From NCBI RefSeq assembly GCF_013387485.1, contig NZ_JABBXB010000002.1, forward strand, positions 382,405 through 446,404: a stretch of 64,000 nucleotides of DNA. The letters run 5' to 3'. The position numbers and the translations under genes are program-made. The stretch's first letter is position 1; each line of letters opens with the position of its first letter. This stretch comes from Stenotrophomonas sp. SAM-B (GTDB lineage: Bacteria; Pseudomonadota; Gammaproteobacteria; Xanthomonadales; Xanthomonadaceae). Under the pieces are notes generated by a model. That model searched no databases. It saw only the letters and a program-made list of their open reading frames with translations, and was not told the DNA's origin. Positions 41,996 to 55,043 of the stretch are shown here, piece by piece.

Positions 41996-42801
41996 ATCCG
42001 ACAATGGCGTCGCCCAACTTTGACGCGGCAGGGTGTGTTCGCCTTCCCGCGCCCGGTGCCGCTCGCGTCCCCAAGGGCGTCACCACCGCCTGGATGCAGC
42101 TGCGCGGCACGTCGACCGTGCAGTGCCAGGAGGGAACCTTCCTGCTCAGGCGAGGTGACTGGATCCTGCTCGATGGTGCTTCCCAGCCGCGCCTCCAGAC
42201 AGATCATCTCGCAATCTGCATGGGTCTGTGTCTTCCGTCAAGCCACGCCTTTTACCCCGGCCGCGGTCGCATGTGGCGGGACGAGATGCAGATCGCGGTG
42301 CGCCTTTGGCGCCGCACTCGGGTGGTCCCGGATGGCAAGGTCATGGCGCGGGAGGATTTGCGCCCGCTATTCCTCCTGATGGAAGATCTCCAGCGTGATA
42401 TCGGCATCGCAGCGAACCGCTGCCCAGGGCGATCCATCAAGCAGCGGGCCCCACTGATGGCAACGTTGCAGCGGACCCGCCTGTACCTGGAAGGTCACAC
42501 GCTGCTCGACCACAGGGTTGACGATCTGGCCGCGTTCGCGGGACTTCCGGCGCGCTACCTCTCCAGGGTGTTTCATGCCGTCTATGGACTGTCCCCGCTA
42601 TCGTTCGCCGGGTGCGTGCGGTTGGATCACGCTGTGCGCCTGCTTCGCGAGGGAGAGATGACGGTGGACCAGATTGCCGTGACCGTTGGGTACAAGCATC
42701 GTGGGACGCTTCTGTCGGCGCTGCGCGCGCATCTGGGGTTGGGGCGGATGGACAGGATTGAGGATCATGTTCAGCCCATGCAGAGTGCTGGAAAACCATG
42801 A
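41992..42801 (+). CDS. AraC-family transcriptional regulator, 269 aa
   Basis: Paralogue of the regulator at 24251: it shares AWMQLRG, LLRRGDWILL, ICMGLCLPSS, YPGRGRM and MQIAVRLWRR in the N-terminal domain. The C-terminal AraC helix-turn-helix has VDDLAAFAGLPARYLSRVF and VDQIAVTVGYKHRGTLLSAL. The start is uncertain: GTG at 41992 or ATG at 42004, neither with a good ribosome site. The first 25 residues look derived from the broken pilin upstream rather than from the AraC family, whose paralogue has a longer, different N-terminus. The regulator may thus be N-terminally altered but still able to bind DNA. Its targets are unknown; the adjacent pilin and GTPase operon is the obvious suggestion. 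Confidence 0.78.
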   Translation: MNPTMASPNFDAAGCVRLPAPGAARVPKGVTTAWMQLRGTSTVQCQEGTFLLRRGDWILLDGASQPRLQTDHLAICMGLCLPSSHAFYPGRGRMWRDEMQIAVRLWRRTRVVPDGKVMAREDLRPLFLLMEDLQRDIGIAANRCPGRSIKQRAPLMATLQRTRLYLEGHTLLDHRVDDLAAFAGLPARYLSRVFHAVYGLSPLSFAGCVRLDHAVRLLREGEMTVDQIAVTVGYKHRGTLLSALRAHLGLGRMDRIEDHVQPMQSAGKP

Positions 42802-42823
42802 GAGCGTGGGTCGTGAGGCGGCG

Positions 42824-43585
42824 CTATTCTTTCCCCGCGCCTTGCTGGTCAGCGTCCTCCTCGTCCACACCATCTGCGAAAGAATTGATGTACTTTGCCG
42901 TACCCCCGGGCAGCGATCGGGGCGACGACGCCAACGAGGCAGCCATGAAGTTTGCCTCGAAGACGAACGGATAGGGCCTCCATCCGGGCACGCCAGTGCT
43001 CGGGTCGCGCAACAGGGTCCATGTGAAGTAGATGGGTATGTTGGCAGGTCCGCGGAGGTCTTCCAGGTAGCTCTTCCAGCTGCGGTTGGTGTCCGGCACC
43101 AGCTCTCCCTCGGTTATGTCGGCAAGTGTGCCGTCCTCGATATGACGGATCTCGGGAATCATGCAGCGAATGCGCACGCTGACTGACTCGATCCCGTCCT
43201 GATTCCGTTCCACCGGCTGGCTTGGCAGTACGGGAGCGCAGTTGATCCGACGCTGCGCGTCGGCCATTACTTGATACAGGGCATGGCCACCGTGGGCGTC
43301 TTCTACTGCTTGAGCGATGGCATAGTCCAATCCTTCGCGTGTCTCGCCGATATAGTTGGAACGCACATCTTCTTCAGTGCTACCCGTCGTGACGGCGTGG
43401 AATTTAATGAACGATTCGTCGTCGAGCTGAAGGATCAGACGCATGCCGAGCATGGCGAGATCCTCAGGACTGACCTCGCTGCTGTTCTGCATTGCCATGC
43501 TGCCGTTGTTCTCGGCGGCGCTGGGAAACGCCCATGGAAGGAAAGCGGCCGAAGTGAGCATCGCGAAGCGGTTCAGGCTGATCAT
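42824..43585 (-). CDS. Secreted protein of unknown function, 253 aa
   Basis: A signal peptide (1-24, ending FPSAAEN) is followed by a soluble, acidic mature protein with two cysteines (INCAP, IRCMIP), probably a disulfide. The C-terminal tail is highly charged (DGVDEEDADQQ). No membrane helix or known domain was recognised. It faces the AraC gene tail to tail, 22 bases apart. Base composition is slightly less GC-biased than neighbours, which is compatible with an accessory gene. Confidence 0.65.
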   Translation of the reverse strand: MISLNRFAMLTSAAFLPWAFPSAAENNGSMAMQNSSEVSPEDLAMLGMRLILQLDDESFIKFHAVTTGSTEEDVRSNYIGETREGLDYAIAQAVEDAHGGHALYQVMADAQRRINCAPVLPSQPVERNQDGIESVSVRIRCMIPEIRHIEDGTLADITEGELVPDTNRSWKSYLEDLRGPANIPIYFTWTLLRDPSTGVPGWRPYPFVFEANFMAASLASSPRSLPGGTAKYINSFADGVDEEDADQQGAGKE

Positions 43586-43698
43586 TCAGATTCCGAGGTT
43601 ATGAGGGTTGACCCAGATGAGTGTCGGTGGCAGCGCGCACATCTGCGCCGTGAGTGCCGTCCAGAATGAGTCCGGGCAGAGAGCTTGAAGCGACGCCA

Positions 43699-44274
43699 TC
43701 ACCTCGAAAGACTGACAGACCAGGCACGCAGCCCGATCCAGGCAGGAGAGAGGGTCAGCGCCATCACCCGGTGCCATCGTCGTACAGCGCCTCGGCACAC
43801 CAGCACCATGGCGGTGTACACGGGAAGCATCAGCCCCAGTTCGATGACCAGGTTCCTCCAGAGATAGTAGTTGCCGATCTTCAACGCTCCCGCACTCGGA
43901 AGTACGCCGATCGGCATCTGGATCTCTGCAGGGAGCGGCCATAGCAGCGGCACGGCGTGCGCACCCACCAGCAGATCGAGCATTCCGTGCGAGGCGGCCG
44001 CGGCAATGAGCCAGATGGCCGGGAATCTGGCCGTCCTGCTGCTACGCGTGGCGGCGTACACAGCCACGACGGCAACCAGCGCGAAAAGCAGGCTATGCGT
44101 GAATCGCGGATGGGGGACGTAGTCGAACCACCAGACGGCCACGTAGTCGAGGTCCGGGCAGATCGCCAGGAACACGAAGGGCGTCAGTGCCCACCGGGAC
44201 CGTTTATCCGCCCATGTGTTGCTGCACAGGTAGGCGGTGATGCCGGCGGCCGCGTGAGCCAGGACGGAGGACAT
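43699..44274 (-). CDS. YdjM-like inner-membrane protein (DUF457, metal-dependent hydrolase family), 191 aa
   Basis: The start at 44274 (MSSVLAHAAAGITAYL) places the family-typical first helix with its conserved His at the N-terminus. FLAICPDLDYV and PHPRFTHSLLFAL provide the conserved Asp and His residues thought to bind metal, and SHGMLDLLVG is a third conserved segment. Four to five membrane helices are predicted. Members (YdjM and relatives) are inner-membrane proteins with poorly known function, in some species under LexA control. No LexA box was seen here. Confidence 0.8.
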   Translation of the reverse strand: MSSVLAHAAAGITAYLCSNTWADKRSRWALTPFVFLAICPDLDYVAVWWFDYVPHPRFTHSLLFALVAVVAVYAATRSSRTARFPAIWLIAAAASHGMLDLLVGAHAVPLLWPLPAEIQMPIGVLPSAGALKIGNYYLWRNLVIELGLMLPVYTAMVLVCRGAVRRWHRVMALTLSPAWIGLRAWSVSLSR

Positions 44275-44383
44275 GGGAGTGGCCCAGAGCGTGTCGAACG
44301 CAGAGCATGGGTCCGGCCCATGGGGCGAACGTGGTGCGACTGTGTCGCGAACGTGAAGCGGCCCGCGTGCTGCGCGAGTGCCA

Positions 44384-46750
44384 TCATCCGCCCGCTGCAC
44401 TCACGTTGCCGATCCCGTCCCGATTCAGCGCTTCCACCAATGCCCAGATTCTCGCATCGGCGGGATTGCCGTTGATGGCGTGCGCCTTCAGACATAGCTG
44501 CAGCTCACACAGCACCGCCACCGCCTCCGCATCGGCAACCATGGAAGCCGCCCCCTGCATGCGATGCGCCATCGCCAGGGCGCCGCGCCAGTTCTGCACG
44601 CGTAGCGACACCTCCAGTCCGGCCTGGTCCAGACGCATCTGCTGGCGATAGGTCTCCATCATGGTCAATCCTTCCTCCATCGCCGTGGCAGGGGGTGGCG
44701 CGTCGCGCCTGGTCCCACCACTCGCCGCGTCGAAGGCAGCCCAGTCGATTGGCTTCCCCAGGTAGATATCCACGCCGGCGCGCGCATAGGCGTTCCGGTC
44801 GATACTGTCCGGGGAGGCTGAGATGGACAGAATGCGTGCCGGAGGCCAGTCCCGGCGGCGCTCGATGGCCCGGATTTCCAGTGCGACGTCGCTTCCGTCG
44901 GCATCCAGGAGGTCACCGTCCACGGTGATGATGCCAAACGGGCCGTGCTGGTTCATGGTCCGCACGGCTGCAGCGCCCGAGCTGGCGATCAGGGCATCCA
45001 GACCGAGGCCACAGAGACGGCGGACCATGACCCGCGCGATGGTCGGCTGATCCTCGATCACCAGCGCGTGCGCGACGGATGGAGCAGCGGCCGGTTCAGC
45101 CGGTGAACCGCTGCCGGTCTCGGCTCCGGCGAGCTCGGCACGCAGGACAGCCACGAACGTAGCGCCCATCCGCGGCGTGCTGGTGACCGTGACATCCCCG
45201 CCATGGGCACGGGCGATCCGCCGGCACAGCGACAGCCCGATCCCCGCGCCGTGCTTGAGGCGGCCGATGCGGGTCGCGCTGAACGGCTCGAAGATGTGGG
45301 CGAGGTCCTCTTGCGGAATACCCGGCCCGACGTCGGTGACGCTGAGCAGGAGGGAGCCGGCCTGGCCCACGCCGGTGATGAAGCGCAGGGTGATGGTCAC
45401 GTCGCCATGGTCGCTGAACTTGATCGCGTTCGAGATCAGGTTGCTCGCAATGTGATGCAGGGCGCGCGCATCACAGAACGCCTGCGCGGTCCGCGGGCCC
45501 TCTGTGTGCAGCAGCAGGCGCAATCCCTTGCATTGCGCCAGCGGACGCATCGCCGACAGGCATTCCTCCACGACCTCACTGGCGTTCTTGAGGAACGCGG
45601 CATCGGCCTGGTCCGGTTTGTTGCGGAACATGAACTCCAGGGCATTGGTGAGGGTGTGCTTCAGCGCATCGGCAGCCGAGCGGGCCGAGCGCAGCAGCCG
45701 CTCGCGCTCGGCCGCGTCCGCTTCGGCCTCGAGCAGGTCGATGGCGGAAATGACCGACGCCGCGCCGTTGCGGACCTCATGGTTGACCAGCGTGAGAATC
45801 CGCGCCGAACTGGCCTGGCGAGCGGCCAGTGCCCGTGCCCTGCGCTGGGCACGTGCCACGGCAAGCAGGAACACAAGCAGGGCGAGGCAGAGGACCGTGA
45901 CGTGCACGCGGTAATGGCTCAGCACCGCACGCAGGGTAGGGGGAGAGCGGTACAGGGCATTCAACCAGCGCTCGAGAATGTCCTGCCGGGTATCCAGTGG
46001 CAGCGACAGGAACGTCTGGTGGGCGAGATCGATGTCGGCCGCGCGATGCGGCAACGACGCAACGCGCATCTCCACCGGGGGCGCGTCGGGCGCGGCCTGC
46101 ACGGCCAATCGCGCGTCGAAGCGCTTGCGCGTCAAGGGGGCCAGCACGGCGTCCACCCCCAGCGCGGCATCGATCGCTCCCCGGTCCACGGCGTCCAGCA
46201 TCTCGTCCACATTGGCGATCTGGTAGACGTCGATGGCTGGGAAGTTCCGGGCCAGGAAGGCCCGGTACTCGCCATTGCCGATCACCCCGACCCGCATGCC
46301 GCCCATCGACGAGAGCGCCCGTGGCCCCACCGTCCGGCGCGTGACCATCACGGTGCTTCCACTGTAGAACGAGGGCGACAGGGTTGCCGTGGCAGGCAGC
46401 ATCGTTGCCGTGGAGGGCAGGGAGAAGGCAAGGCCATCCACCTCTTCGTTCTTGAGCAGCAGTGCGGCGCGCTCGATGGATGGGGCGCGCACCAGTTTCA
46501 GCTTGAGCCCTGACAGGGCCTGCACCGCCTCCAGATAGGCGCTGGCGCCGCCTTTGGCGGGATCCCCGGCCAGCCCGTGCTGCGTGGCCAGCTGGGGGCC
46601 GATCGCCAGCGTGAACGGCACGCGCTGCGGGGTGGTCGGCGCCAGTACAAGCCAAAGCAGGGTGCCGCTGATCGCAAGCATGGCAGCAAGCCACGCCATG
46701 CGCCGCACACGCTGTCGTCCTTCAATAGCAGAGCTCACGATGTCATCCAT
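44384..46750 (-). CDS. Hybrid sensor kinase with SBP-like sensor, receiver and HPt, 788 aa
   Basis: A membrane helix at 17-38, a periplasmic SBP_bac_3-like domain (about 45-270) and a second helix (283-300) are followed by a kinase core. The phospho-acceptor His324 lies in LTLVNHEVRNGAAS, where the usual H-E-x-R-T-P reads H-E-V-R-N-G. The ATPase motifs are NLISNAIKF, DVGPGIPQE and GAGIGLSL. A receiver domain has IEDQP, its acceptor Asp in ITVDGDLLDADG and the Lys in GKPID. The HPt has His in MAHRMQGAAS. The start at 46750 is chosen because it precedes the first helix by a short basic segment. Motif copy H lies 87 bases upstream in the same orientation. No response regulator is adjacent, so the HPt may feed the regulators at 7643 or 37792. 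Confidence 0.85.
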   Translation of the reverse strand: MDDIVSSAIEGRQRVRRMAWLAAMLAISGTLLWLVLAPTTPQRVPFTLAIGPQLATQHGLAGDPAKGGASAYLEAVQALSGLKLKLVRAPSIERAALLLKNEEVDGLAFSLPSTATMLPATATLSPSFYSGSTVMVTRRTVGPRALSSMGGMRVGVIGNGEYRAFLARNFPAIDVYQIANVDEMLDAVDRGAIDAALGVDAVLAPLTRKRFDARLAVQAAPDAPPVEMRVASLPHRAADIDLAHQTFLSLPLDTRQDILERWLNALYRSPPTLRAVLSHYRVHVTVLCLALLVFLLAVARAQRRARALAARQASSARILTLVNHEVRNGAASVISAIDLLEAEADAAERERLLRSARSAADALKHTLTNALEFMFRNKPDQADAAFLKNASEVVEECLSAMRPLAQCKGLRLLLHTEGPRTAQAFCDARALHHIASNLISNAIKFSDHGDVTITLRFITGVGQAGSLLLSVTDVGPGIPQEDLAHIFEPFSATRIGRLKHGAGIGLSLCRRIARAHGGDVTVTSTPRMGATFVAVLRAELAGAETGSGSPAEPAAAPSVAHALVIEDQPTIARVMVRRLCGLGLDALIASSGAAAVRTMNQHGPFGIITVDGDLLDADGSDVALEIRAIERRRDWPPARILSISASPDSIDRNAYARAGVDIYLGKPIDWAAFDAASGGTRRDAPPPATAMEEGLTMMETYRQQMRLDQAGLEVSLRVQNWRGALAMAHRMQGAASMVADAEAVAVLCELQLCLKAHAINGNPADARIWALVEALNRDGIGNVSAAGG

Positions 46751-46837
46751 GATGGTGGGGCGGGGCCGACGGCGGTCATTCGGTCGGGGAGTGATAGGAA
46801 CATGCGCGACAGAAGTACACGCGCCAGCGCAAGTGCG

Positions 46838-46856
46838 GTATGCAACAAGTACGAAA
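46838..46856 (-). promoter_or_regulatory. Copy H of the shared motif, minus strand
   Basis: Read on the minus strand this is TTTCGTACTTGTTGCATAC: three departures from the consensus (position 5 and the last two). It shares its first 14 bases exactly with copy F at 47328. It lies 87 bases before the hybrid kinase start and points towards it. Its correct orientation on the opposite strand supports the motif being functional. Confidence 0.55.
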
Positions 46857-47039
46857 TCCGCCGCGGCGATCGCGAATTGAGGCATGGGACTGGTCCCATC
46901 CCATGGTGTCGCGAGACACCAGCGCGTCAGGAGCAACTGTCCCAGCGCGTCGTACTCGCACGGTCGTCACGACGATTCCACGCCTTGCTGCTTCGGCGAT
47001 CCCTAACCTGAGACTCCCGTCGCGACGTTCTTCTTTCCC

Positions 47040-47285
47040 ATGACCACAGCACTGCATGATCTCGACGCACTTGAGCCCATCGATATCGACGGACTGAAAG
47101 CGCAGGGCGTGCCTCCGGTCGCCCAGTATCTCGTCGACCAGGAAAAGTTCGTCCTGCTCGGGGGCAAGCGCGGCATCTATCGCCTGGCAGGGACGGATAC
47201 CGTGTGCTACTTCACCAGCCTGGACCAGATCCGGTTGCATCTGCTGGGGCAATCTTTGACCCGGCTGACGGTCGAGTTGGCGTAA
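47040..47285 (+). CDS. Small protein of unknown function, 81 aa
   Basis: A soluble 81-residue protein with no signal peptide or membrane helix: an acidic start (LDALEPIDIDGL), then QYLVDQEKFVLLGG, IYRLAGTDTVCYFTSLDQIRLHLLGQ. The alternating pattern suggests a small alpha/beta fold. The ATG at 47040 lacks an obvious Shine-Dalgarno sequence. The gene lies between inverted copies H and F of the shared motif and divergent from the hybrid kinase. I do not recognise a family. Codon use and length support a real gene, but this is not certain. Confidence 0.6.
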   Translation: MTTALHDLDALEPIDIDGLKAQGVPPVAQYLVDQEKFVLLGGKRGIYRLAGTDTVCYFTSLDQIRLHLLGQSLTRLTVELA

Positions 47286-47327
47286 GACACGCGCTGCTGA
47301 TCGTTGTTGATGAAATCCGTACGCGAT

Positions 47328-47346
47328 TTTCGTACTTGTTGTATGG
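47328..47346 (+). promoter_or_regulatory. Copy F of the 19-base shared upstream motif
   Basis: TTTCGTACTTGTTGTATGG differs from the consensus at position 5 and in the core (TGTATGG for TGCATGG). It lies 95 bases before the DsbD-like gene start at 47442. Confidence 0.55.
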
Positions 47347-47441
47347 CCCTGCCGGGGCGACCTGCATAGGTTGGACGGTCGGCACCTGCGGCGATCACCA
47401 TGATCCCGTACCTGCCGCTCCTTATCTGGCAGGACATCGCG

Positions 47442-48767
47442 ATGCATCTGGCAAGACGTTTTTCCCGTGGAATGATCGGCGTGGGTGCGCTCGTCTGCAG
47501 TGCTTCCGCCCAGGCGGCTTCGGCGGCTGCCACCACGCCGATGGTGCCCGATGGGCTTGCGTGGGTACTGGTCATGGCATTGCTGGGCGGGGTCGTGCTG
47601 AACCTGATGCCCTGCGTTCTTCCGGTTTTGTCGTTGAAGGTGCTGTCCGTGCTGGGCACGGGCGCGGACCCGGTGCAGTTGCGGCGGCACGCGCTGTCCT
47701 ACACCGCAGGCGTCCTACTCTCGTTCCTCGCCATCGGCGCGTTGATTCTGGTGCTGCGCTCCACCGGCAGCGTGCTGGGGTGGGGCTTTCAGCTGCAGCA
47801 GCCCGCGTTCGTCGCGGTGCTGGCCTGGGTGATGGTGCTGGTCGGCCTGAGCCTGGCAGGCATGTTCACGCTGGGCGGCGCGGTAGGCAGCACGGGCCAG
47901 AAGCTGCTGGGCAGGCAGGGCTACGCCGGTGACTTCTGGGCCGGTGTGCTGGCCTGCGTGGTGGCGAGCCCCTGCGTAGCCCCTTTCATGGGGCCTGCAT
48001 TGGCGTATGCATTCAGCGCCTCATGGGTGGCTGCGTTGCTGGTCTTCGTGATGCTGGGGCTTGGCCTGGCATTGCCCTTCCTGCTGATCGGTTTCTTTCC
48101 GGTACTGGGACGCTGGCTGCCCCGGCCCGGCGCGTGGATGGAGACGCTGAAGATCCTGCTGGCGTTCCCGATGCTGCTGACCGCTGTCTGGCTCGTGTGG
48201 TTGCTGGGGAACCAGAAGGGCATGAACGCCGTCGCCCTCATCCTGTCCGCCTGCGTCGTGCTGGCGCTGGGCCTGTGGTTGTTCGAGCAGGGCCGCTGGC
48301 GCAGCCAGACCTGGCGCAAGGTGTTGGGTGGGTTGGTGATCGTTGCCAGTCTTGCGTTGGTGGGCGCCATCCACCGTTTGCCCAATACCGATGGCAATGC
48401 GACGCGTCCCTCGAAGATGATCGGCGCGACGTCTTATTCTGCGCGTGACCTGGCCCATGCCCGCAACGAAGGCCGCCAGGTCCTGCTGACGGTGACCGCC
48501 GACTGGTGCATCACCTGCATCGCCAACGAGCAGACGGTGCTGGCCACGGACCGCTTCCAGTCCCTGTTGCTGAGCACGGAAACGCTGTACATGAAAGCGG
48601 ACTGGACCCACAGCGATCCGCTGGTCGGCGCGTTGTTGAAGGAGCAGGGCGCCCCCGGTGTGCCGCTGTATGTGCTCTATCGACCGAATCAGGAGGGTGA
48701 AGTGCTGCCGCAGGTTCTCACCCAGGAGACAATGCGCGAGGCGCTGAGTCCGGTACGGCCTGAGTAG
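47442..48767 (+). CDS. DsbD/ScsB-like thiol:disulfide interchange protein, 441 aa
   Basis: Carries reducing power from cytoplasmic thioredoxin to the periplasm. A signal-like N-terminus (1-28, ending AQAA) is followed by an eight-helix CcdA/DsbD-beta domain with the paired membrane cysteines in LMPCVLPVLSLK and VASPCVAPFMG. A C-terminal thioredoxin-like gamma domain has the CITC active site in TADWCITCIANE. The N-terminal periplasmic alpha domain of classical DsbD (about 120 residues) is absent, so another protein must relay electrons to the substrate. The ATG at 47442 has AGGA at 47430. Motif copy F upstream places the gene with the pilins and fimbriae, whose cysteines could be its clients. 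Confidence 0.85.
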   Translation: MHLARRFSRGMIGVGALVCSASAQAASAAATTPMVPDGLAWVLVMALLGGVVLNLMPCVLPVLSLKVLSVLGTGADPVQLRRHALSYTAGVLLSFLAIGALILVLRSTGSVLGWGFQLQQPAFVAVLAWVMVLVGLSLAGMFTLGGAVGSTGQKLLGRQGYAGDFWAGVLACVVASPCVAPFMGPALAYAFSASWVAALLVFVMLGLGLALPFLLIGFFPVLGRWLPRPGAWMETLKILLAFPMLLTAVWLVWLLGNQKGMNAVALILSACVVLALGLWLFEQGRWRSQTWRKVLGGLVIVASLALVGAIHRLPNTDGNATRPSKMIGATSYSARDLAHARNEGRQVLLTVTADWCITCIANEQTVLATDRFQSLLLSTETLYMKADWTHSDPLVGALLKEQGAPGVPLYVLYRPNQEGEVLPQVLTQETMREALSPVRPE

Positions 48768-49105
48768 TCAGATGCCGCCGTGCCGCGGCAATGGCGCGGG
48801 CACGTTCAACTGCCCGCCCGCCGCCACGTAGGCGGCCAAGGCTTCGCCCTGGCTGAGCAGATGCCGGTTCATCATCTGCTCGGCGGCTTCGGCATCGCGG
48901 TTGCGGATGCACTCCATCAGGGCGCGATGCTCGGCCAGTGACTGCGCCATGCGGCCCGGGGTCAGCAGCTGACGGCCGCGATGCATTTTCAGGATGCGGT
49001 GCAGATCGTGGGTGACGCGGATCAGCCACGGGTTGCCGGCATGCGTCTGCAGACTCTCGTGGATCAGGTAGTTGTTGCGGTAGTACTCTGCGGGATATCG
49101 GAGCT
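48768..49105 (-). pseudogene. Truncated GntR-type regulator (FCD domain only)
   Basis: The last 110 residues read as the C-terminal ligand-binding FCD domain of a GntR/FadR-type regulator: LIHESLQTHAGNPWLIRVTH, LTPGRMAQSLAEHRALMECI and RDAEAAEQMMNRHLL, with the His residues that bind metal in this family. Upstream of about 49105 the frame stays open to 49451 but the sequence is no longer GntR-like, and the N-terminal winged helix is missing. Instead, toxin-antitoxin remnants on the other strand occupy the space. The gene was probably cut by insertion or deletion and cannot encode a DNA-binding regulator. Confidence 0.75.
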
Positions 49106-49196
49106 TCCGATCGAGGTTTGCCCTGGGTGCCGCGTGCATTACACGCAACGTGGAGGCGAAGTGGTAAAGACAATAGCCCTGAATGGCTCGGAGTAA
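49105..49196 (+). pseudogene. 3' fragment of a HigB/HI1419-type toxin
   Basis: About 30 codons, in frame to the TAA at 49194, read CPGCRVHYTQRGGEVV. This matches the conserved GPGYRVYYTQRG segment near the C-terminus of phage-derived Gp49-like toxins, but the following GGDKSTQ is lost (KTIALNGSE) and the N-terminal two-thirds are absent. The start of the fragment coincides with the point where the GntR-type sequence on the other strand ends. Confidence 0.6.
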
Positions 49197-49203
49197 AGGT
49201 GCC

Positions 49204-49504
49204 ATGGGAATGAACAAGAAAACGCGCTTGGAGACGTTCGATGTGGCCGAGCACCTGCGTACACCGCACGAGATGGCGGCGTATCTCCATGCTTGCCTCA
49301 TTGAAAGCGACGGCGATGCGGCTTTCATCGCCAAGGCGCTGGGCGATATCGTGCGCGCAGGGCATGAGTAGAGTCGCGCGTGATGCGGGTCTGTCGCGCG
49401 TAAGCTTGTGCGGGGCATTGTCCGGTGAACGCAGCCCGGACTTTGCCACAATCCTCAAAGTCACCCGTGCACAGGGCGTGACCCTGCATGCCAGCGCGGC
49501 GTGA
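49204..49504 (+). pseudogene. Frameshifted HI1420/HigA-type antitoxin
   Basis: The first frame (ATG at 49204 or 49210) encodes ETFDVAEHLRTPHEMAAYL and DGDAAFIAKALGDIVRAGHE, then stops at 49371. In the next frame the expected continuation appears at once: GMSRVARDAGLSRVSL, SPDFATILKVTRAQGVTLHA, ending at 49504. Joined, they make a complete addiction-module antidote of about 98 residues with its Cro-like helix-turn-helix. One missing base near 49357 explains the break. The helix-turn-helix also has an odd Cys (SLCGAL for the usual SLYRAL), a sign of decay. Confidence 0.7.
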
Positions 49505-49664
49505 TGCTGAATCCATGAGACTTACGGTCGCCAGCGTGGAGACGATCAGCTGGCCGCCTTCCCGTCAGGCGAGGAGGGCTCTGGGCCAGTGCCCGGGAGT
49601 TATCGCTGGGCAGACGTATTCAGGTAGAGTGGCGCGAGAACGGGATGAACGGGGGTTTCAATCC

Positions 49665-49910
49665 ATGTGGCGACAACTTGGGGCTTTGCATCTGGTGCTG
49701 GCACTGGTATTCGGGGCCGCGTACTTCCTGGGCATCTCAGTAGTGGCTCGAAGTAAGTTTGCATTCGACACGAGCGACGTGCTGTCCTCGGCTGCCGGCA
49801 TGTGGTTCGCGCCGAACATCGTGGTCTCTGTCCTGAGTGGCATGGCGGGCGCATGCGTTGGCGTGTTTGTTCGACGTGGTCAACGTCGCTCTGAAGCAAG
49901 CGCCGCTTAG
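49665..49910 (+). CDS. Small membrane protein, 81 aa
   Basis: Two predicted membrane helices (about 5-27, LGALHLVLALVFGAAYFLG, and 48-70, APNIVVSVLSGMAGACVGVFV) with a short loop and a basic C-terminus (RRGQRRSEASAA). The ATG at 49665 is preferred over upstream in-frame codons because the preceding sequence is unlike a protein. No family was recognised. It is the first of three small same-strand genes (to 50772) encoding membrane proteins and a lipoprotein. Confidence 0.55.
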   Translation: MWRQLGALHLVLALVFGAAYFLGISVVARSKFAFDTSDVLSSAAGMWFAPNIVVSVLSGMAGACVGVFVRRGQRRSEASAA

Positions 49911-49942
49911 CGTTGATCGTTCGACGGACAAAAACCCCACAT

Positions 49943-50416
49943 ATGCCAATGTACGCAGAATTGATCATTGCGCGATCTCTGAAGCTTGCAGCGATTGCGG
50001 CAGCGTTTGTTGCCTGCTTCGTACTTGCGTGCAACCTGGTTAGCATGAGTTGCCCGCTCGACGCCTACCCGCCGAGCGTACTGGCGGCGATGTATGTGGC
50101 TGTATTGATGCTGATGGTGTACTCGAGGTTCAAGTTTGCATCGAGGGGCCTGGTGAAGCTGCCTGCATCATGGGTTGGACGCGTGCTCGGTGCGGTGGTC
50201 GCGGTTGAACTGGTCGGTGTCGGCGTGCTGCTTGCGTGGAACCGTGACTGTGGGAGCATCGTTCGCGCACTCCCGGTCCCGGCAGCGCTTCTGATCTTCT
50301 ATACGACGGTAGGATTCTCGTTGCTCTTTGGTGATGCCCATCTGGGCATACTGAGGAACGTGATTCGCCTGGGCGTCAAACCGAAGGACTTCCTCCGGGA
50401 CGGTGATTTGAGATGA
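49943..50416 (+). CDS. Membrane protein of unknown function, 157 aa
   Basis: Four predicted membrane helices (near residues 10-32, 45-60, 78-98 and 110-130) with cysteines in FVLACNL, SMSCPLD and NRDCGS. The C-terminal tail is cytoplasmic and charged. In-frame start codons are TTG 49913, ATG 49943 and ATG 49949; 49943 is chosen as the first ATG. The stop overlaps the next gene's start (ATGA at 50413-50416). The family was not recognised. Confidence 0.6.
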   Translation: MPMYAELIIARSLKLAAIAAAFVACFVLACNLVSMSCPLDAYPPSVLAAMYVAVLMLMVYSRFKFASRGLVKLPASWVGRVLGAVVAVELVGVGVLLAWNRDCGSIVRALPVPAALLIFYTTVGFSLLFGDAHLGILRNVIRLGVKPKDFLRDGDLR

Positions 50417-50772
50417 TTGCACTCAGGTACGTGGTGTTGGTTGCAGGAGCGTTGTTGGCAGCGTGTGGCGAAGATAATGCGCTGACACTGAAGCTCGAGG
50501 ACGTCCAGTTCTTCAAGGCCCAACAGAGCCGACCAGGGGAGCTGTTGCTGTCGGGCCTTGCCTTTCATAGCGCGCTCGCCGTTGAGCGGATCGATAGCGT
50601 GCGTCAGGGGGACGCGATTCAAATCAACGTGATGCTGGTGCCCGCGAAAGCGGGCATGTCGGGCAGTTTCACTTACGCGCTCCCCCTGGATGACAAGGTG
50701 GATCGGGTTACATTCGGCGACGCGAAGGCGATTGTCTGGCGTCGCGACGGCGGCGTGGTTCGACGACCATGA
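50413..50772 (+). CDS. Small lipoprotein, 119 aa
   Basis: A lipoprotein signal peptide with lipobox LLAAC (Cys18) is followed by GEDN, so no inner-membrane retention Asp at +2. The mature part is a small beta-rich domain (LTLKLEDVQFFKAQ, DAIQINVMLVPAK, GSFTYALPL). It is translationally coupled to the preceding membrane protein gene (ATGA overlap), which suggests a joint envelope function. No family was recognised. Confidence 0.7.
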   Translation: MIALRYVVLVAGALLAACGEDNALTLKLEDVQFFKAQQSRPGELLLSGLAFHSALAVERIDSVRQGDAIQINVMLVPAKAGMSGSFTYALPLDDKVDRVTFGDAKAIVWRRDGGVVRRP

Positions 50773-50863: not shown

Positions 50864-51469
50864 TCAGCCCGGCGCCTTGCCCGCACGCGGCCGCCGCGGC
50901 TTCGCCCCCCGCGGCACAACCTTCGGCGTCGCCACCAGCACGCCCCACTGATGCAGGTGCTCCATGCCCGACAGCGCATCCAGGTACGCCATGAAATGCG
51001 TCAGGTAACCGGGTGAGGTCTCTTTCATCAGCGTCAGGGCGCGATGGACCAGTACACCGGAGTTCAACGGCCCACCATTGGTGGGCATCTGGGCCAGTGA
51101 TTCCTTGAGCTGGCTGGCATTGCGAAGCCTGGCCCACGTCGCCCGGACCTCGCCCAGCACCGGCAATTCCGGATACGCAGCACTGTGCTGCCGGGTCAAT
51201 TCCGTGACCAGCGCCTGCAGGCCGATGCGACCCGATGACAGGCCCGGCTCGGATGTCAGCGATGCCGACGCATCGGCAACCCGCTCAGCGTAACCCGCGA
51301 CCAACGCGTCCAGCTTCCGTTGCAACAGCGCCCGCACCTCCCCGTCATGCGCCTGCATGCGGGCATGCAACGCCTCGATCATCGCAAAACGCGTGCGGTC
51401 CAGCCCGTCGAGCTTGTCCGCTCGCCAGTTCTCGAGAATCTCAGCGGTTGCAACAGGGTTACGGGGCAT
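50864..51469 (-). CDS. DUF2894-type protein of the motor-like cluster, 201 aa
   Basis: Helical cytoplasmic protein, last gene of a four-gene minus-strand cluster. It has a coiled-coil N-terminal half (TAEILENWRADKLDGLDR, HARMQAHDGEVRALLQRKLD), a central segment SQLKESLAQMPTNGGPLNSG that I associate with the DUF2894 family, and a basic C-terminus (RGAKPRRPRAGKAPG). The start at 51469 overlaps the OmpA-like gene by 11 bases. Its presence next to DUF802 and OmpA proteins is a recurring arrangement in beta- and gammaproteobacteria as far as I know. Its function is unknown. Confidence 0.75.
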   Translation of the reverse strand: MPRNPVATAEILENWRADKLDGLDRTRFAMIEALHARMQAHDGEVRALLQRKLDALVAGYAERVADASASLTSEPGLSSGRIGLQALVTELTRQHSAAYPELPVLGEVRATWARLRNASQLKESLAQMPTNGGPLNSGVLVHRALTLMKETSPGYLTHFMAYLDALSGMEHLHQWGVLVATPKVVPRGAKPRRPRAGKAPG

Positions 51470-52106
51470 CCGCGGCCTTGCTCGCCTTGGGTTTCGGGAT
51501 CGGGGCGATTTCGACGCGGCGGTTCTTGGCGCGGCCATCCTCGTCGGCGTTGGAACTCACCGGCTGCTCCGAGCCAAACGCTGCGGCAAACACCGCATCC
51601 GACGGCACGCCTTCGGCGATCAGGGTGCGGGTCACGGTCAATGCACGCTCGGCGGACAGCTCCCAGTTGTCGGCGAAGCGCCAGTTGCCATCGCGCACCT
51701 GCTGGTCGTCGGTGAAGCCGCTGACCATGAGGATTTCCTCGCGCGAGGCCAGGTAGCCTTTCAGCGGCCCGGCCAGGCTCTTGAGGACGTCGACGCCCTC
51801 GGGCTGCAGCGTGTCGGAGTTCAAGGCAAACAGCACATTGCCGCGGATGCCGATGCGGCCATCCACCAGCGTCACGCGCCCGGCCGCGAGCGGGCCGGCC
51901 AGTGCCTGCTCCAGCGTCTGGCGACGCTGCACTTCGGCCTGGCGCTGCTTGACCTCCTCATCCAGCCGGTTGGTCAGCTCCAACTGCAGCGCGACGACGC
52001 CGACCAGGATCAGTACGAACGCACCGAGCAGCACCGACATCAGGTCGCCGAAGGCGGCCCAGATCGGCGCGCCTCCGTCGGCCTCGACTTCGATCTCGTC
52101 GCTCAT
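51459..52106 (-). CDS. MotB/ZorB-like OmpA-family protein, 215 aa
   Basis: A short cytoplasmic start is followed by one membrane helix (about 16-42, WAAFGDLMSVLLGAFVLILV). Asp21 at the base of this helix is in the position of the proton-carrying Asp of MotB, TolR, ExbD and ZorB. A coiled-coil plug-like segment follows (43-72, EEVKQRQAEVQRRQTLEQAL). The C-terminal OmpA-like peptidoglycan-binding domain has LMVSGFTDDQQV, NWELSAERALTVTRTLI and the NRRVEI ending. It would anchor a stator complex to the cell wall. It is coupled to the DUF802 gene by a 4-base overlap (52103-52106). Confidence 0.85.
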   Translation of the reverse strand: MSDEIEVEADGGAPIWAAFGDLMSVLLGAFVLILVGVVALQLELTNRLDEEVKQRQAEVQRRQTLEQALAGPLAAGRVTLVDGRIGIRGNVLFALNSDTLQPEGVDVLKSLAGPLKGYLASREEILMVSGFTDDQQVRDGNWRFADNWELSAERALTVTRTLIAEGVPSDAVFAAAFGSEQPVSSNADEDGRAKNRRVEIAPIPKPKASKAADAP

Positions 52107-54355
52107 GCCGAGGCGGCTCCGGCCTTGCTGCTGCGGCGGCCGGCCAGCTGCTGCAGCTCATCGATGATCTGCTTCTGCGAAAGCACGCTGAGGTCGATGA
52201 CCTCGCGCGCCTGGGCCACGTAGTAAGCAAGCTGCTCGTCACTGCGGGCCAGCGAGCCGTCCAGCGAGGCGGCGATCTGGGCCAGCCGCTCGTTGAGGCC
52301 ATCGCTGGCCGTCCCGAACGACTGCACGGCGCTGCCGAGCGCATCGGCCAGGCTCGCTACTTCCACCGCGCTGCCGGTGACCTGCGCGGCCACGCTGCCC
52401 AGCTTGCCGGTCTCGGCTTCGATGTGATCGGTGAAGCGGGTGCCGACCCGGTCCAGCAGCTCGGCCGAGGTCGATACCAGCGCATCGACGGCGACGCGCT
52501 GTTCGTTGGCGGCGTGGTTGACCGCATCCAGCAGAGTCTCCACGGTCGCCAGCAGACGGCTGCGTTCTTCCAGCGTGGCGGTGTCGCGGACCAGGCTGTC
52601 GGACAGTTTGCTGCGCAGCTCGGCAACGACATCGGCCGCGGCCTTGGGCGCTTCCGACGCCGCCTGGACCAGGCGCGAGATCTCGCTGATCGTCTCGCTG
52701 GCGTGGGCCTGTGCCTGCTGGGTGATGTCGTTGGCGGTGCGGGCGAGGGTGTCGCAGATGTCCTGCTGGCGGCGGGCCACGCTGTCGCCGGTCTGCTCCC
52801 AGCGCTCGCCGAGGCTGGCACTCATACCGGTGAAGGCCTCGGTCCACGCGCTCAGACGTTGCTGATCGCGTGCTTCCAGCGCGTCCTGCAGCTGGGCATG
52901 GGACTGCTGCATCGCATCGCCGAGTGACACCGCCTGTGCCTGCAGCGTCGCGGCGGCGGCGTCCAGCGCCTGTTGGTGACGCTCGCTCAGTGCCGTTGCG
53001 GCCGCATCCTGGCGGGCCAGGGCCTGCTGCCATGCCTCGGCGATCTGGGCGGTGGTGGCGTCCAGGCGGCTGCCGACCGAGTCGATCAGACCGGTGGCCC
53101 GGGCCTCGTGCGTTTCGGTGAAGCTGGACAGTGCGCTGCGCAGATCGGCAGTCAGCGCGGCATGGGTCTGCTGCTGAGCGGACTGGGCCGCCTGCCAACC
53201 GTCAGCGGTGCTGACCAGCTTCGCGGAAACCGCGTCGAGCAGGCCAAGCGCGCGTTGATCGTGCTGTGCGGCGAATCCGTCCAGCGCGGCGCGCAGGTCG
53301 GCGGTCAATGCGGTATTGGTCTGCTGCTGGCTGTCCAGCGCGGCCTGCCAGGACGCGGCGGTGGCGACGCGGCTGGCGTCGAAGCCCTCGGTCAGACCGG
53401 TCAGCTGGCGCTGTACAGCCTCGGTCACCGTCTCGTGCATGGCGGCGTTGGCGCGGGCGATGCCGGCCAGGGTGGTGTCCATCACCGGTTGCAAGGCCGC
53501 GCCAACCGCGCGTGCGCTTTCGGCGACGCTGTCCTTGAGTGACTGCTCGATCGCGGCGGTCAGGCGCGCGTATTCTTCGTCGGCCTTGGCATGGAAGTTC
53601 TGCTGGTTGGCCAGCAGCCGCTCGCCCGAGGCGCTGCTCTGCTGCTCGATCGCGGCCGTCATGGCCTGCAGCCGATCCACCAGCGCGGGCATGAGCTCGG
53701 CCTGCTGCTGCAGCAGCCGGAAGGCTTCATTGCGCTGCCAGGACTGCGAGTGGGTGTGCAGGGTGGTCGCGATCTCCATGTCCAGCCGCTGCACCGCCTC
53801 CAGGCGCTCACGCCGGCACAGGGCCGAGAGCAGGCCGAGCATGGCGGAGGTGGCGACACCGGCGATCGAGGTGCCGAACGCCACCGCGAGACCTTCCACC
53901 GGCGCACCCAGCGAACCACGGATGGCCTGCAGGTCGGTCGCGCTCTCCAGTGCCAGGCCGGTGCCACGCAGGGTGGCCATCATGCCGAGCAACGTGCCGA
54001 GCATGCCGAGCAGCACCAGCAGGCCGACCAGGTACGGCGTCAGCACCGGACCGGGCAGGGCGACCCGTTCGCCTTCCACGCGCAGCCGCACCGCGTTGCG
54101 CAGGCTGGGATGCAGCTGGCCGAGCCAGGCGGCGAGCCCTGCGCCTGCCGTGCCCGCACTGGCGCTGGCCGACGCAAGCGAGGCGGTCGCCTGCCGGTAG
54201 CGATACAGCTCCAGGCCACCGGCGAGGTAGCAGACGGCGATCAGCAGAGCGACCGCGAAGCCGACCGGATTGGTGCTGGCATAGCCCGCCCCGATCCAGC
54301 ACACCGCCACAAGGCCAAGCAGGAAAACAACGTAGTGAAGACTGGTTCTGAACAT
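52103..54355 (-). CDS. DUF802 protein: MotA/TolQ/ZorA-like membrane part with a very long coiled-coil tail, 750 aa
   Basis: Four membrane helices: two near the N-terminus (about 5-25 and 30-50), then VLTPYLVGLLVLLGMLGTLLGMMATL (about 105-130) and LAVAFGTSIAGVATSAMLGLLSAL (about 150-175). The latter two correspond to the pore helices of MotA/ExbB/TolQ-type stator subunits. About 550 helical residues follow. They include near-repeats of about 50 residues (WQAALDSQQQTNTALTADLR, then WQAAQSAQQQTHAALTADLR, then WQQALARQDAAATALSERHQ) and end in SSKAGAASA. A long intracellular tail on a MotA-like subunit is the layout of ZorA. The partner subunit is encoded immediately downstream. The start at 54355 precedes the first helix. 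Confidence 0.85.
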   Translation of the reverse strand: MFRTSLHYVVFLLGLVAVCWIGAGYASTNPVGFAVALLIAVCYLAGGLELYRYRQATASLASASASAGTAGAGLAAWLGQLHPSLRNAVRLRVEGERVALPGPVLTPYLVGLLVLLGMLGTLLGMMATLRGTGLALESATDLQAIRGSLGAPVEGLAVAFGTSIAGVATSAMLGLLSALCRRERLEAVQRLDMEIATTLHTHSQSWQRNEAFRLLQQQAELMPALVDRLQAMTAAIEQQSSASGERLLANQQNFHAKADEEYARLTAAIEQSLKDSVAESARAVGAALQPVMDTTLAGIARANAAMHETVTEAVQRQLTGLTEGFDASRVATAASWQAALDSQQQTNTALTADLRAALDGFAAQHDQRALGLLDAVSAKLVSTADGWQAAQSAQQQTHAALTADLRSALSSFTETHEARATGLIDSVGSRLDATTAQIAEAWQQALARQDAAATALSERHQQALDAAAATLQAQAVSLGDAMQQSHAQLQDALEARDQQRLSAWTEAFTGMSASLGERWEQTGDSVARRQQDICDTLARTANDITQQAQAHASETISEISRLVQAASEAPKAAADVVAELRSKLSDSLVRDTATLEERSRLLATVETLLDAVNHAANEQRVAVDALVSTSAELLDRVGTRFTDHIEAETGKLGSVAAQVTGSAVEVASLADALGSAVQSFGTASDGLNERLAQIAASLDGSLARSDEQLAYYVAQAREVIDLSVLSQKQIIDELQQLAGRRSSKAGAASA

Positions 54356-54365
54356 GACGTCCCGG

Positions 54366-55043
54366 TTAGTGGGTGCGAAGCGCTGCAAGCAGGCCTTCGA
54401 TCGGTTGAAAACGGATATCCAGCTCGGCCAGCAGCAGGCTCTGCATGTCGCGGCGGAACACCTCGCGCCAGGCATCGTCGCTGCTGGCCTCGCGCAGGCG
54501 TTCGAAATGCACCCCGAGCAGCACCGGCACCTTGGCCAGCAGGCCGTGCTCGCGCGCGCTCAGGGTCTGCTCCATCAGCGCATCGACCTCGGCGAGCCTG
54601 GCCATCTCGGGCGAGGTGCGGGTCAGCATGTCGCGCAGACGGCCACGCAGACGGCTGGTGGCACTGAGCATCGAGCGTTGCAGGGTGATATAGCGCTCGC
54701 GGAACACGGTGTAGTCGCTGGACGCTTCGGCACCGCCGGCGTCAACGACCCGGCGAGGGGGCCTGGCAGGCTCAGGTTCCTGAACAATGCTGGCCTCCAG
54801 CGCCGCGCGGATGCGCTGGCACTCGGCGTCCTCGTCGGCGTCGAAATCCGGGCCTTCAACCGCAGGCGGGAGCCGCCCATCGAGCGCCTTGGACAAGGTA
54901 ACCGCCCGCGTCCAGTCCACCCACTCGCTGAGCCGGTCGGACAGGGCAGGGCCCGTCGAGGACAGGTTGCTTTCGGCGAGGCGGGCCAGCAGCCGGATGA
55001 AGGCCGGGCCCGGGACAGGCGTCCGTTGCGCGGTTTTGGCCAT
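54366..55043 (-). CDS. DUF3348-type protein of the motor-like cluster, 225 aa
   Basis: First gene of the cluster, 10 bases before the DUF802 gene. It is a predicted soluble helical protein: FIRLLARLAESNLSSTGPAL, LSEWVDWTRAVTLSKAL, then FRERYITLQRSMLSATSRLR and a C-terminal EVFRRDMQSLLLAELDIRFQPIEGLLAAL. I associate it with DUF3348, found beside DUF802 and OmpA genes. The sequence suggests an adaptor or regulator of the stator-like complex; this is inference from position only. The start is taken at the Met of MAKTAQRTP, near 55043. Confidence 0.75.
   Translation of the reverse strand: MAKTAQRTPVPGPAFIRLLARLAESNLSSTGPALSDRLSEWVDWTRAVTLSKALDGRLPPAVEGPDFDADEDAECQRIRAALEASIVQEPEPARPPRRVVDAGGAEASSDYTVFRERYITLQRSMLSATSRLRGRLRDMLTRTSPEMARLAEVDALMEQTLSAREHGLLAKVPVLLGVHFERLREASSDDAWREVFRRDMQSLLLAELDIRFQPIEGLLAALRTH

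What the first reader, a model, noticed from the sequence alone, without database searches (positions are those of the whole stretch)
50864..55043. DUF3348-DUF802-OmpA-DUF2894 cluster resembles an ion-driven stator with a ZorA-like tail
The DUF802 protein has MotA/TolQ-like pore helices and then about 550 residues of repeated coiled coil. The coupled OmpA-family protein has the single membrane helix with a basal Asp21, a plug-like helix and a peptidoglycan-binding domain, exactly as MotB/ZorB. The Zorya defence system uses the same ZorA/ZorB logic, with a long intracellular tail that signals to effectors. Here the flanking proteins are DUF3348 and DUF2894 rather than nucleases or helicases. 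An undescribed envelope motor or sensor is a reasonable reading; motility, cell-envelope maintenance or phage sensing are all possible.
Basis: partly seen in the sequence, partly recalled or inferred. Interest (0 to 1): 0.75.

Follow-up and report, generated by a model that had tools for sequence, protein, structure and literature searches.

The report
Zorya type III anti-phage motor operon
The four genes are a known bacterial anti-virus system, Zorya type III, built around a predicted membrane motor with a long internal tail; what is unusual is that nearly every species of this bacterial genus carries it and seems to pass it down like an ordinary resident gene set instead of swapping it on mobile DNA.

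Summary
The four minus-strand genes match PADLOC's Zorya type III profiles: DUF3348, DUF802/ZorA3 (1117 bits), ZorB3, DUF2894. Payne et al. 2021 defined this type and showed phage protection in E. coli with the system of contig NZ_LDJG01000021.1, which I recovered as L075 (ZorB 77% identical). The only solved structure a ZorA3 profile finds below E=0.01 is Zorya I ZorA, 8VVN; basal Asp21 is invariant in 63 of 63 ZorB3.

Beyond the papers seen: (1) The locus is almost core in Stenotrophomonas: DUF3348 in 87 of 91 species, HsdR 47, Cas1 5. It follows rpoB (r=0.88, 78 species); it is on 27 of 72,556 plasmid records, each at least 366 kb, and DUF3348 on 0 of 50,697 phages. (2) ZorA tail length varies by repeat units; the window lacks one 51-residue unit that relatives have. 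(3) Neither accessory protein shows a recognisable nuclease. Whether its native job is defence or envelope upkeep is open.

The parts
54366..55043 (-). zorG3 in PADLOC-DB naming (DUF3348), 225 aa, first gene of the operon; predicted all-helical
   Evidence: Pfam DUF3348 1.7e-74; PADLOC ZorG3 1.5e-85; AF2 mean pLDDT 78, pTM 0.73, all helix
52103..54355 (-). zorA3 (DUF802), 750 aa: MotA/ExbB-type pore region then long cytoplasmic tail
   Evidence: PADLOC ZorA3 E=0, 1117 bits; NCBIfam ZorA_2 6.4e-6, 25.5 bits against a cut-off of 100; profile of its membrane region finds PDB 8VVN chain C, E=4.4e-5
53801..54355 (-). ZorA residues 1-185, membrane/pore part; T121, T162, S163 align with T158, T197, S198 of Zorya I ZorA
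   Evidence: alignment A4, PDB profile alignment, hydropathy
52106..53788 (-). ZorA residues about 190-750, coiled-coil-like tail
   Evidence: DUF802 stretches; best self-similarity at offsets 51, 18, 22, 33, 11
53072..53377 (-). two adjacent 51-residue tail units (residues 327-377 and 378-428), 29 of 50 identical in the best register
   Evidence: self-comparison; relatives differ by one such unit
51459..52106 (-). zorB3, 215 aa: one TM helix, OmpA/Pal peptidoglycan-binding domain; overlaps the zorA stop by 4 nt
   Evidence: PADLOC ZorB3 1.9e-114; OmpA 2.7e-17; NCBIfam PRK09040.1 'hypothetical protein' 4.4e-113; 8VVN chain B aligned 9-205 to 12-230
52044..52046 (-). codon of the basal Asp21, in register with Asp24 of Zorya I ZorB
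   Evidence: invariant in 63 of 63 ZorB3; register inferred from the end points, whose letters I did not print
50864..51469 (-). zorF3 in PADLOC-DB naming (DUF2894), 201 aa from ATG 51469 (the open frame begins at 51538)
   Evidence: Pfam DUF2894 1.4e-41; PADLOC ZorF3 5.8e-58; start inferred from overlaps; AF2 all-helical but low confidence, pLDDT 66, pTM 0.35

Best explanation
It is a Zorya type III system. ZorA3 and ZorB3 most likely form a 5:2 inner-membrane motor anchored to peptidoglycan through ZorB's OmpA domain. Ion flow past ZorB Asp21 would turn or rearrange ZorA and its long cytoplasmic tail. The two small helical proteins (DUF3348, DUF2894) most likely sit on the tail or motor base and pass the signal on; they take the place of the ZorC/D or ZorE effectors of types I and II. 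In this genus it is a resident, mostly vertically inherited locus, not a mobile island. Shown here: family identity, gene order, conservation, inheritance pattern, tail repeats. Published for a relative: phage protection in E. coli. Inferred: 5:2 assembly, rotation, ion type, how DUF3348 and DUF2894 act.
For: All four proteins match Zorya III profiles far better than any other PADLOC profile. A ZorA3 profile finds only 8VVN ZorA below E=0.01 among solved structures, and 8VVN ZorB aligns through the membrane helix in a register that puts Asp21 on Asp24. Asp21 is invariant in 63 of 63 ZorB3. The tested Zorya III lies on NZ_LDJG01000021.1 = L075. 84 of 85 loci keep the full order. zorA/zorB overlap by 4 nt in 71 of 76 pairs.
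Against: No assembly or activity could be tested. The published test is heterologous expression in E. coli. DUF3348 and DUF2894 give no informative fold or profile match. Near-core, vertical inheritance is unusual for a defence system and leaves room for another native role.
Confidence: 0.8

Rival explanations
1. A core envelope machine whose main job is not phage defence: a peptidoglycan-coupled motor that senses or repairs the envelope, with phage protection as a by-product, seen most clearly on expression in E. coli.
For: DUF3348 in 87 of 91 Stenotrophomonas species; one further 'absence' (G174) is a contig break with zorA-zorF sequence present. 20 of 20 and 51 of 60 species in two other genera. 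Zor distances follow rpoB, r=0.877. Defence-profile matches among neighbours are rare in the rows shown. DUF3348 not found on phages; on plasmid records only at 366 kb or more. ZorB dN/dS 0.051, like rpoB 0.052.
Against: Cloned Zorya III significantly reduced plaquing by at least one phage. The closest structural homologue is a defence protein. Two species with small genomes (G163, G167) lack it, so it is dispensable. DUF2894 and DUF3348 have higher dN/dS than most genes measured (0.253 and 0.161).
Confidence: 0.25
2. A flagellar or gliding stator (motility).
For: MotA/MotB-like architecture; NCBIfam MotB-family matches, none over its cut-off.
Against: MotB_plug and MotA_ExbB below cut-off; seven other MotA/ExbB-family proteins in the genome; no solved MotA or PomA among the matches of the ZorA3 profile.
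Confidence: 0.03
3. A Tol/Ton-like energiser of an outer-membrane process.
For: Same superfamily; OmpA-type periplasmic domain.
Against: None of the four operon proteins matches TolB, Pal or TonB as its own family in the rows shown; the long tail is Zorya-like.
Confidence: 0.03

Closest known systems
Zorya type III (Payne et al. 2021, PMC8565338; PADLOC ZorA3/B3/F3/G3)
   Same: All four components and domain families; ZorB 77% identical to that on the experimentally tested contig
   Different: Nothing found that sets it apart. Note a naming clash: the papers' text calls DUF3348 ZorF and DUF2894 ZorG, PADLOC-DB 2.0 the reverse
Zorya type I (8VVN, Shewanella sp. ANA-3) and type II (8VVI, Sulfuricurvum), Mariano et al. 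2025, PMC11890865
   Same: ZorAB core, basal Asp, Thr/Ser residues of type I, peptidoglycan-binding ZorB, cytoplasmic tail
   Different: DUF3348 and DUF2894 instead of ZorC/ZorD or ZorE; ZorA length varies widely (625-1229 aa among named loci, one broken copy left out), whereas that paper, on types I and II, calls component size well conserved within each family
Flagellar MotAB/PomAB stators
   Same: Distant MotA/ExbB and MotB/OmpA architecture
   Different: No significant plug match, long coiled-coil-like tail, different operon partners

Membership tests
Zorya type III | ZorA with MotA/ExbB-type pore and long cytoplasmic tail | tested here: met
   ZorA3 profiles E=0; 8VVN match; tail repeats
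Zorya type III | ZorB with basal Asp in one TM helix and OmpA/Pal domain | tested here: met
Zorya type III | Flanking DUF3348 and DUF2894 genes in one operon | tested here: met
   full order in 84 of 85 loci
Zorya type III | Protects against phage | not testable with these tools
   Published for the system on the L075 contig (passages seen); not for this strain
Zorya type III | 5:2 ion-driven rotary complex | not testable with these tools
   Known for types I and II; only single chains can be modelled here
Mobile/patchy defence system (said to be typical, not a defining feature of type III) | Patchy presence, transfer on mobile elements, defence-island neighbours | tested here: not met
   Within Stenotrophomonas: 87 of 91 species, rpoB-like inheritance. 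27 of 72,556 plasmid records (7 of the 27 predicted mobilizable) and DUF3348 on 0 of 50,697 phages; defence-profile neighbours rare in the rows shown. Across the family (45 of 149) and phylum (20 of 398) presence is uneven; presence between strains of one species was not tested
Zorya type I or II | ZorC/ZorD or ZorE beside ZorAB | tested here: not met
   The four operon proteins match none of these; the upstream neighbour is an aldo/keto reductase and three nearby genes on the other side had no Pfam hit above cut-off. The rest of the genome was not searched for ZorC, ZorD or ZorE
Flagellar MotAB | MotA_ExbB and MotB_plug above curated cut-offs | tested here: not met
   16.2 against 22.9 bits; 12.1 against 24 bits

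The most novel reading that the evidence does not exclude
Zorya type III is not chiefly a mobile immune module. It is an ancient, mostly vertically inherited, peptidoglycan-anchored rotary machine of Lysobacterales and Burkholderiales. Its tail length is re-set by gain and loss of in-register coiled-coil units, and it works without a nuclease through two helical adaptors. Mobile types I and II would then be offshoots of, or siblings to, a resident envelope-sensing motor.
Probability: 0.3. Interest if true: 0.75.

Novelty: already known. Interest (0 to 1): 0.42.

Why it matters
The operon itself is a catalogued defence system. What would matter is its inheritance: a defence system present in nearly all species of a genus, tracking rpoB, is either a core innate immunity or a housekeeping machine mislabelled as defence. 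Both can be tested with one clean deletion. The natural series of tail lengths also gives ready-made variants for asking what the ZorA tail measures or touches.

Tried and rejected
Fold of the accessory proteins. DUF3348 is predicted all-helical (168 of 225 residues at pLDDT 70 or more), but Foldseek gave nothing at E<=0.001 (best 0.1, a designed bundle) and VIA-align a best Z of 7.1 with generic helical bundles, which its own notes call possibly just a common arrangement. The DUF2894 model is too weak to use (no hit at E<=0.001). Sequence-profile searches of solved structures gave 0 matches at E<=1 (DUF3348) and 12 weak ones (DUF2894, best E 0.09).

Motility stator, Tol/Ton energiser: rejected as above.

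First rpoB comparison (r=0.08) was an orientation error of mine; corrected. My first gene calling by longest ORF failed on antisense ORFs and was replaced by anchored tblastn and a home-made codon-score caller; neighbour labels rest on that caller.

Positive selection: not seen; all median dN/dS values are below 0.26. Medians can hide single sites.

'Absent' in G174: rejected; its contig C150 begins inside zorA. G214 is only 76% complete and cannot count as an absence.

Against my vertical-inheritance reading: the Stenotrophomonas clade itself has local support of only 0.327, and Dyella, Luteibacter and Cupriavidus are not single clades in that tree; the locus occupies several genomic sites within the genus; in the family sample only 45 of 149 genomes have it; 7 of the 27 plasmid records are predicted mobilizable. 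No other defence gene was put through the same tree test as a control.

Full report
What is there. On the minus strand lie, in order of transcription, DUF3348 (54366-55043), DUF802/ZorA (52103-54355), an OmpA-type ZorB (51459-52106) and DUF2894 (50864-51469, inferred start). Pfam confirms each family. The genes are tightly packed: in the named relatives, zorA and zorB overlap by 4 nt in 71 of 76 pairs and the DUF3348-to-zorA gap is 10 nt in 53 of 75.

What it is. PADLOC profiles give ZorG3 1.5e-85, ZorA3 E=0 (1117 bits), ZorB3 1.9e-114 and ZorF3 5.8e-58. NCBIfam is less informative: ZorB is an equivalog named only 'hypothetical protein', and ZorA reaches a ZorA model below its cut-off. These are the four parts of Zorya type III, defined by Payne et al. 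2021 (PMC8565338; passages seen), who counted 6,401 such clusters, cloned the system of Stenotrophomonas nitritireducens DSM 12575 (NZ_LDJG01000021.1) into E. [quoted passage not shown] That contig came back as my L075, with a ZorB 77% identical to the window's. The window's five nearest named relatives are Stenotrophomonas, with S. rhizophila and S. bentonitica among them, ZorB 97-99% identical. Mariano et al. 2025 (PMC11890865; outline with abstract, results section on ZorAB, discussion and passages seen) solved Zorya I and II ZorA5B2 and, in what I saw, mention type III for its components and its distribution (Burkholderia, Xanthomonas, Stenotrophomonas, Ralstonia, Paraburkholderia).

How it should work. 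A profile of 29 ZorA3 membrane regions finds a single solved structure below E=0.01: ZorA of Zorya I (8VVN chain C, E=4.4e-5), residues 109-193 on 146-228; the other two hits are at 0.21 and 0.30. In that alignment T121, T162 and S163 fall on T158, T197 and S198 (my count of positions), and all three are invariant in the 29. Since the type I structure holds sodium at conserved Ser/Thr residues, a sodium-driven type III is possible, but this is inference: I did not verify which residues of 8VVN bind the ion. ZorB aligns with 8VVN chain B from residue 9 to 205 in a register that puts Asp21 on Asp24, the residue reported crucial for Zorya I and II defence; Asp21 is invariant in 63 of 63 ZorB3. 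The 5:2 assembly, rotation and coupling are inferred from types I and II. DUF3348 is predicted all-helical (pLDDT 78, pTM 0.73) and DUF2894 as helices with low confidence; neither gives an informative match to a known fold. A nuclease is therefore not recognisable in this type, unlike ZorE; a remote one is not excluded.

Inheritance. Searching one genome per species of the window's genus, DUF3348 was found in 87 of 91. Controls in the same 91: rpoB detected in 85, which shows that the method misses some present genes; type I restriction HsdR_N in 47, 46 of them over the cut-off; Cas1 in 5. Of the four without DUF3348, G174 carries zorA-zorF sequence on a broken contig, G214 is 76% complete, and G163 and G167 (3.4 and 3.0 Mb, neighbours in the rpoB tree order) seem truly to lack it. 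I fetched 84 loci; with the window, 84 of 85 had all four genes in order, the other being cut by the contig end. Patristic distances of the Zor tree and the rpoB tree correlate at r=0.877 over 78 species, with 0 of 999 permutations reaching that (highest 0.236). The genomic site changes with the subclade: 41 share one pair of flanks, 14 a second, and smaller groups others, some sharing only one flank. Elsewhere: 20 of 20 species in one further genus of the family, 51 of 60 in one genus of another family, 45 of 149 in the family sample and 20 of 398 in the phylum sample. So it is near-core in some genera and absent from many.

Mobility. ZorB (E<=1e-40) and DUF3348 (E<=1e-5) hit the same 27 of 72,556 plasmid records; the smallest is 366 kb, 20 of 27 exceed 1 Mb, and 7 are predicted mobilizable. 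No phage record of 50,697 matched DUF3348; ZorB was not searched there. Neighbours: of the two nearest called genes of 80 aa or more on each side of the named loci (183 distinct), 181 were scanned. In the first 90, three PADLOC families matched one member each (mad2, mad3, mad8); in the other 91, 33 families matched, 25 of them shown, each with one member, 22 of the 25 being PD-T4-6 profiles; the output does not say whether these are the same member. Pfam names for the commonest neighbours are regulators, transporters and metabolic enzymes, though only the top 25 of 95 and of 97 families were shown. Mariano et al. describe the distribution of the three Zorya types across strains as typical of anti-phage systems; for type III within Stenotrophomonas my counts differ. 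My data hold one genome per species, so variation between strains of one species is untested.

Rates. In the 43 genomes sharing one left flank, median dN/dS was 0.051 for ZorB, 0.104 for the ZorA core, 0.141 for its tail, 0.161 for DUF3348 and 0.253 for DUF2894, against 0.052 for rpoB (40 genomes) and 0.046-0.166 for seven flanking genes. All four are kept by purifying selection; DUF2894 is the loosest.

Tail. Named-locus ZorA lengths run from 625 to 1229 aa (one broken 348-aa case, L097, left out) and from 595 to 853 in the genus, while ZorB stays at 209-224 among the named loci. The window's tail holds two adjacent 51-residue units (29 of 50 identical) and lacks one 51-residue unit that G190 and G155 have; G183, of the same length as the window, aligns with its gap elsewhere. 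L065 shows a 131-residue period (48% identical) and L109 an 87-residue one (38%); length differences of about 51, 62, 87 and 131 occur within Stenotrophomonas, Pandoraea, Cupriavidus and Achromobacter. These are all near whole numbers of helical turns at about 3.64 residues per turn, which would keep a coiled coil in register; that is my arithmetic, made after the fact. Mariano et al., writing of types I and II, call component size well conserved within each family; type III ZorA seems an exception.

Literature check. Full-text searches for DUF802/DUF3348/DUF2894, Zorya with type III, Stenotrophomonas, or core genome, ZorA/ZorB and ZorC/ZorD terms and Zorya III showed in their listings no study of type III mechanism or of its core status; that covers this open-access library only, most hits were seen as listings, and the Nature paper on Zorya structure was not held. 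One paper (PMC12584637, passages) reports that in Burkholderia cenocepacia K56-2 the first one or two genes of the Zorya I and Zorya III operons change during phage infection, but does not list Zorya III among the systems it calls transcriptionally active. Another (PMC11953036, passages) only lists it in a Variovorax strain. A stator phylogeny (PMC12505986, passages) left ZorAB out of its phylogenetic analyses, calling it a remote homologue.

Verdict. A known system, correctly spotted in architecture. The near-core, mostly vertical inheritance and the unit-wise tail variation are the parts worth following.

Noticed in passing
window 42800-50770: The gene block that follows zorF in five close relatives (clusters 61-65 and on, in L138, L139, L140, L143, L144) is missing beside zorF in the window, which has other genes there.
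   Followed up: partly
L156:7437-7945: The stretch upstream of zorG in L156 matches dozens of places in genome G174, mostly at about 70-90% identity, so it seems to hold a short interspersed (REP-like) repeat.
   Followed up: no
L097:6647-10648: zorA of this Cupriavidus contig is broken into separate open frames; decay or sequencing error.
   Followed up: no
window 50864-55043: Naming clash: the papers' text calls DUF3348 ZorF and DUF2894 ZorG, PADLOC-DB 2.0 the reverse.
   Followed up: yes
L041, L049, L052, L058, L060, L073 (Luteibacter), about 10340-10650: In these loci the extrapolated DUF2894 start falls well inside zorB, so zorF may start or overlap differently there; starts were extrapolated, not confirmed.
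   Followed up: no
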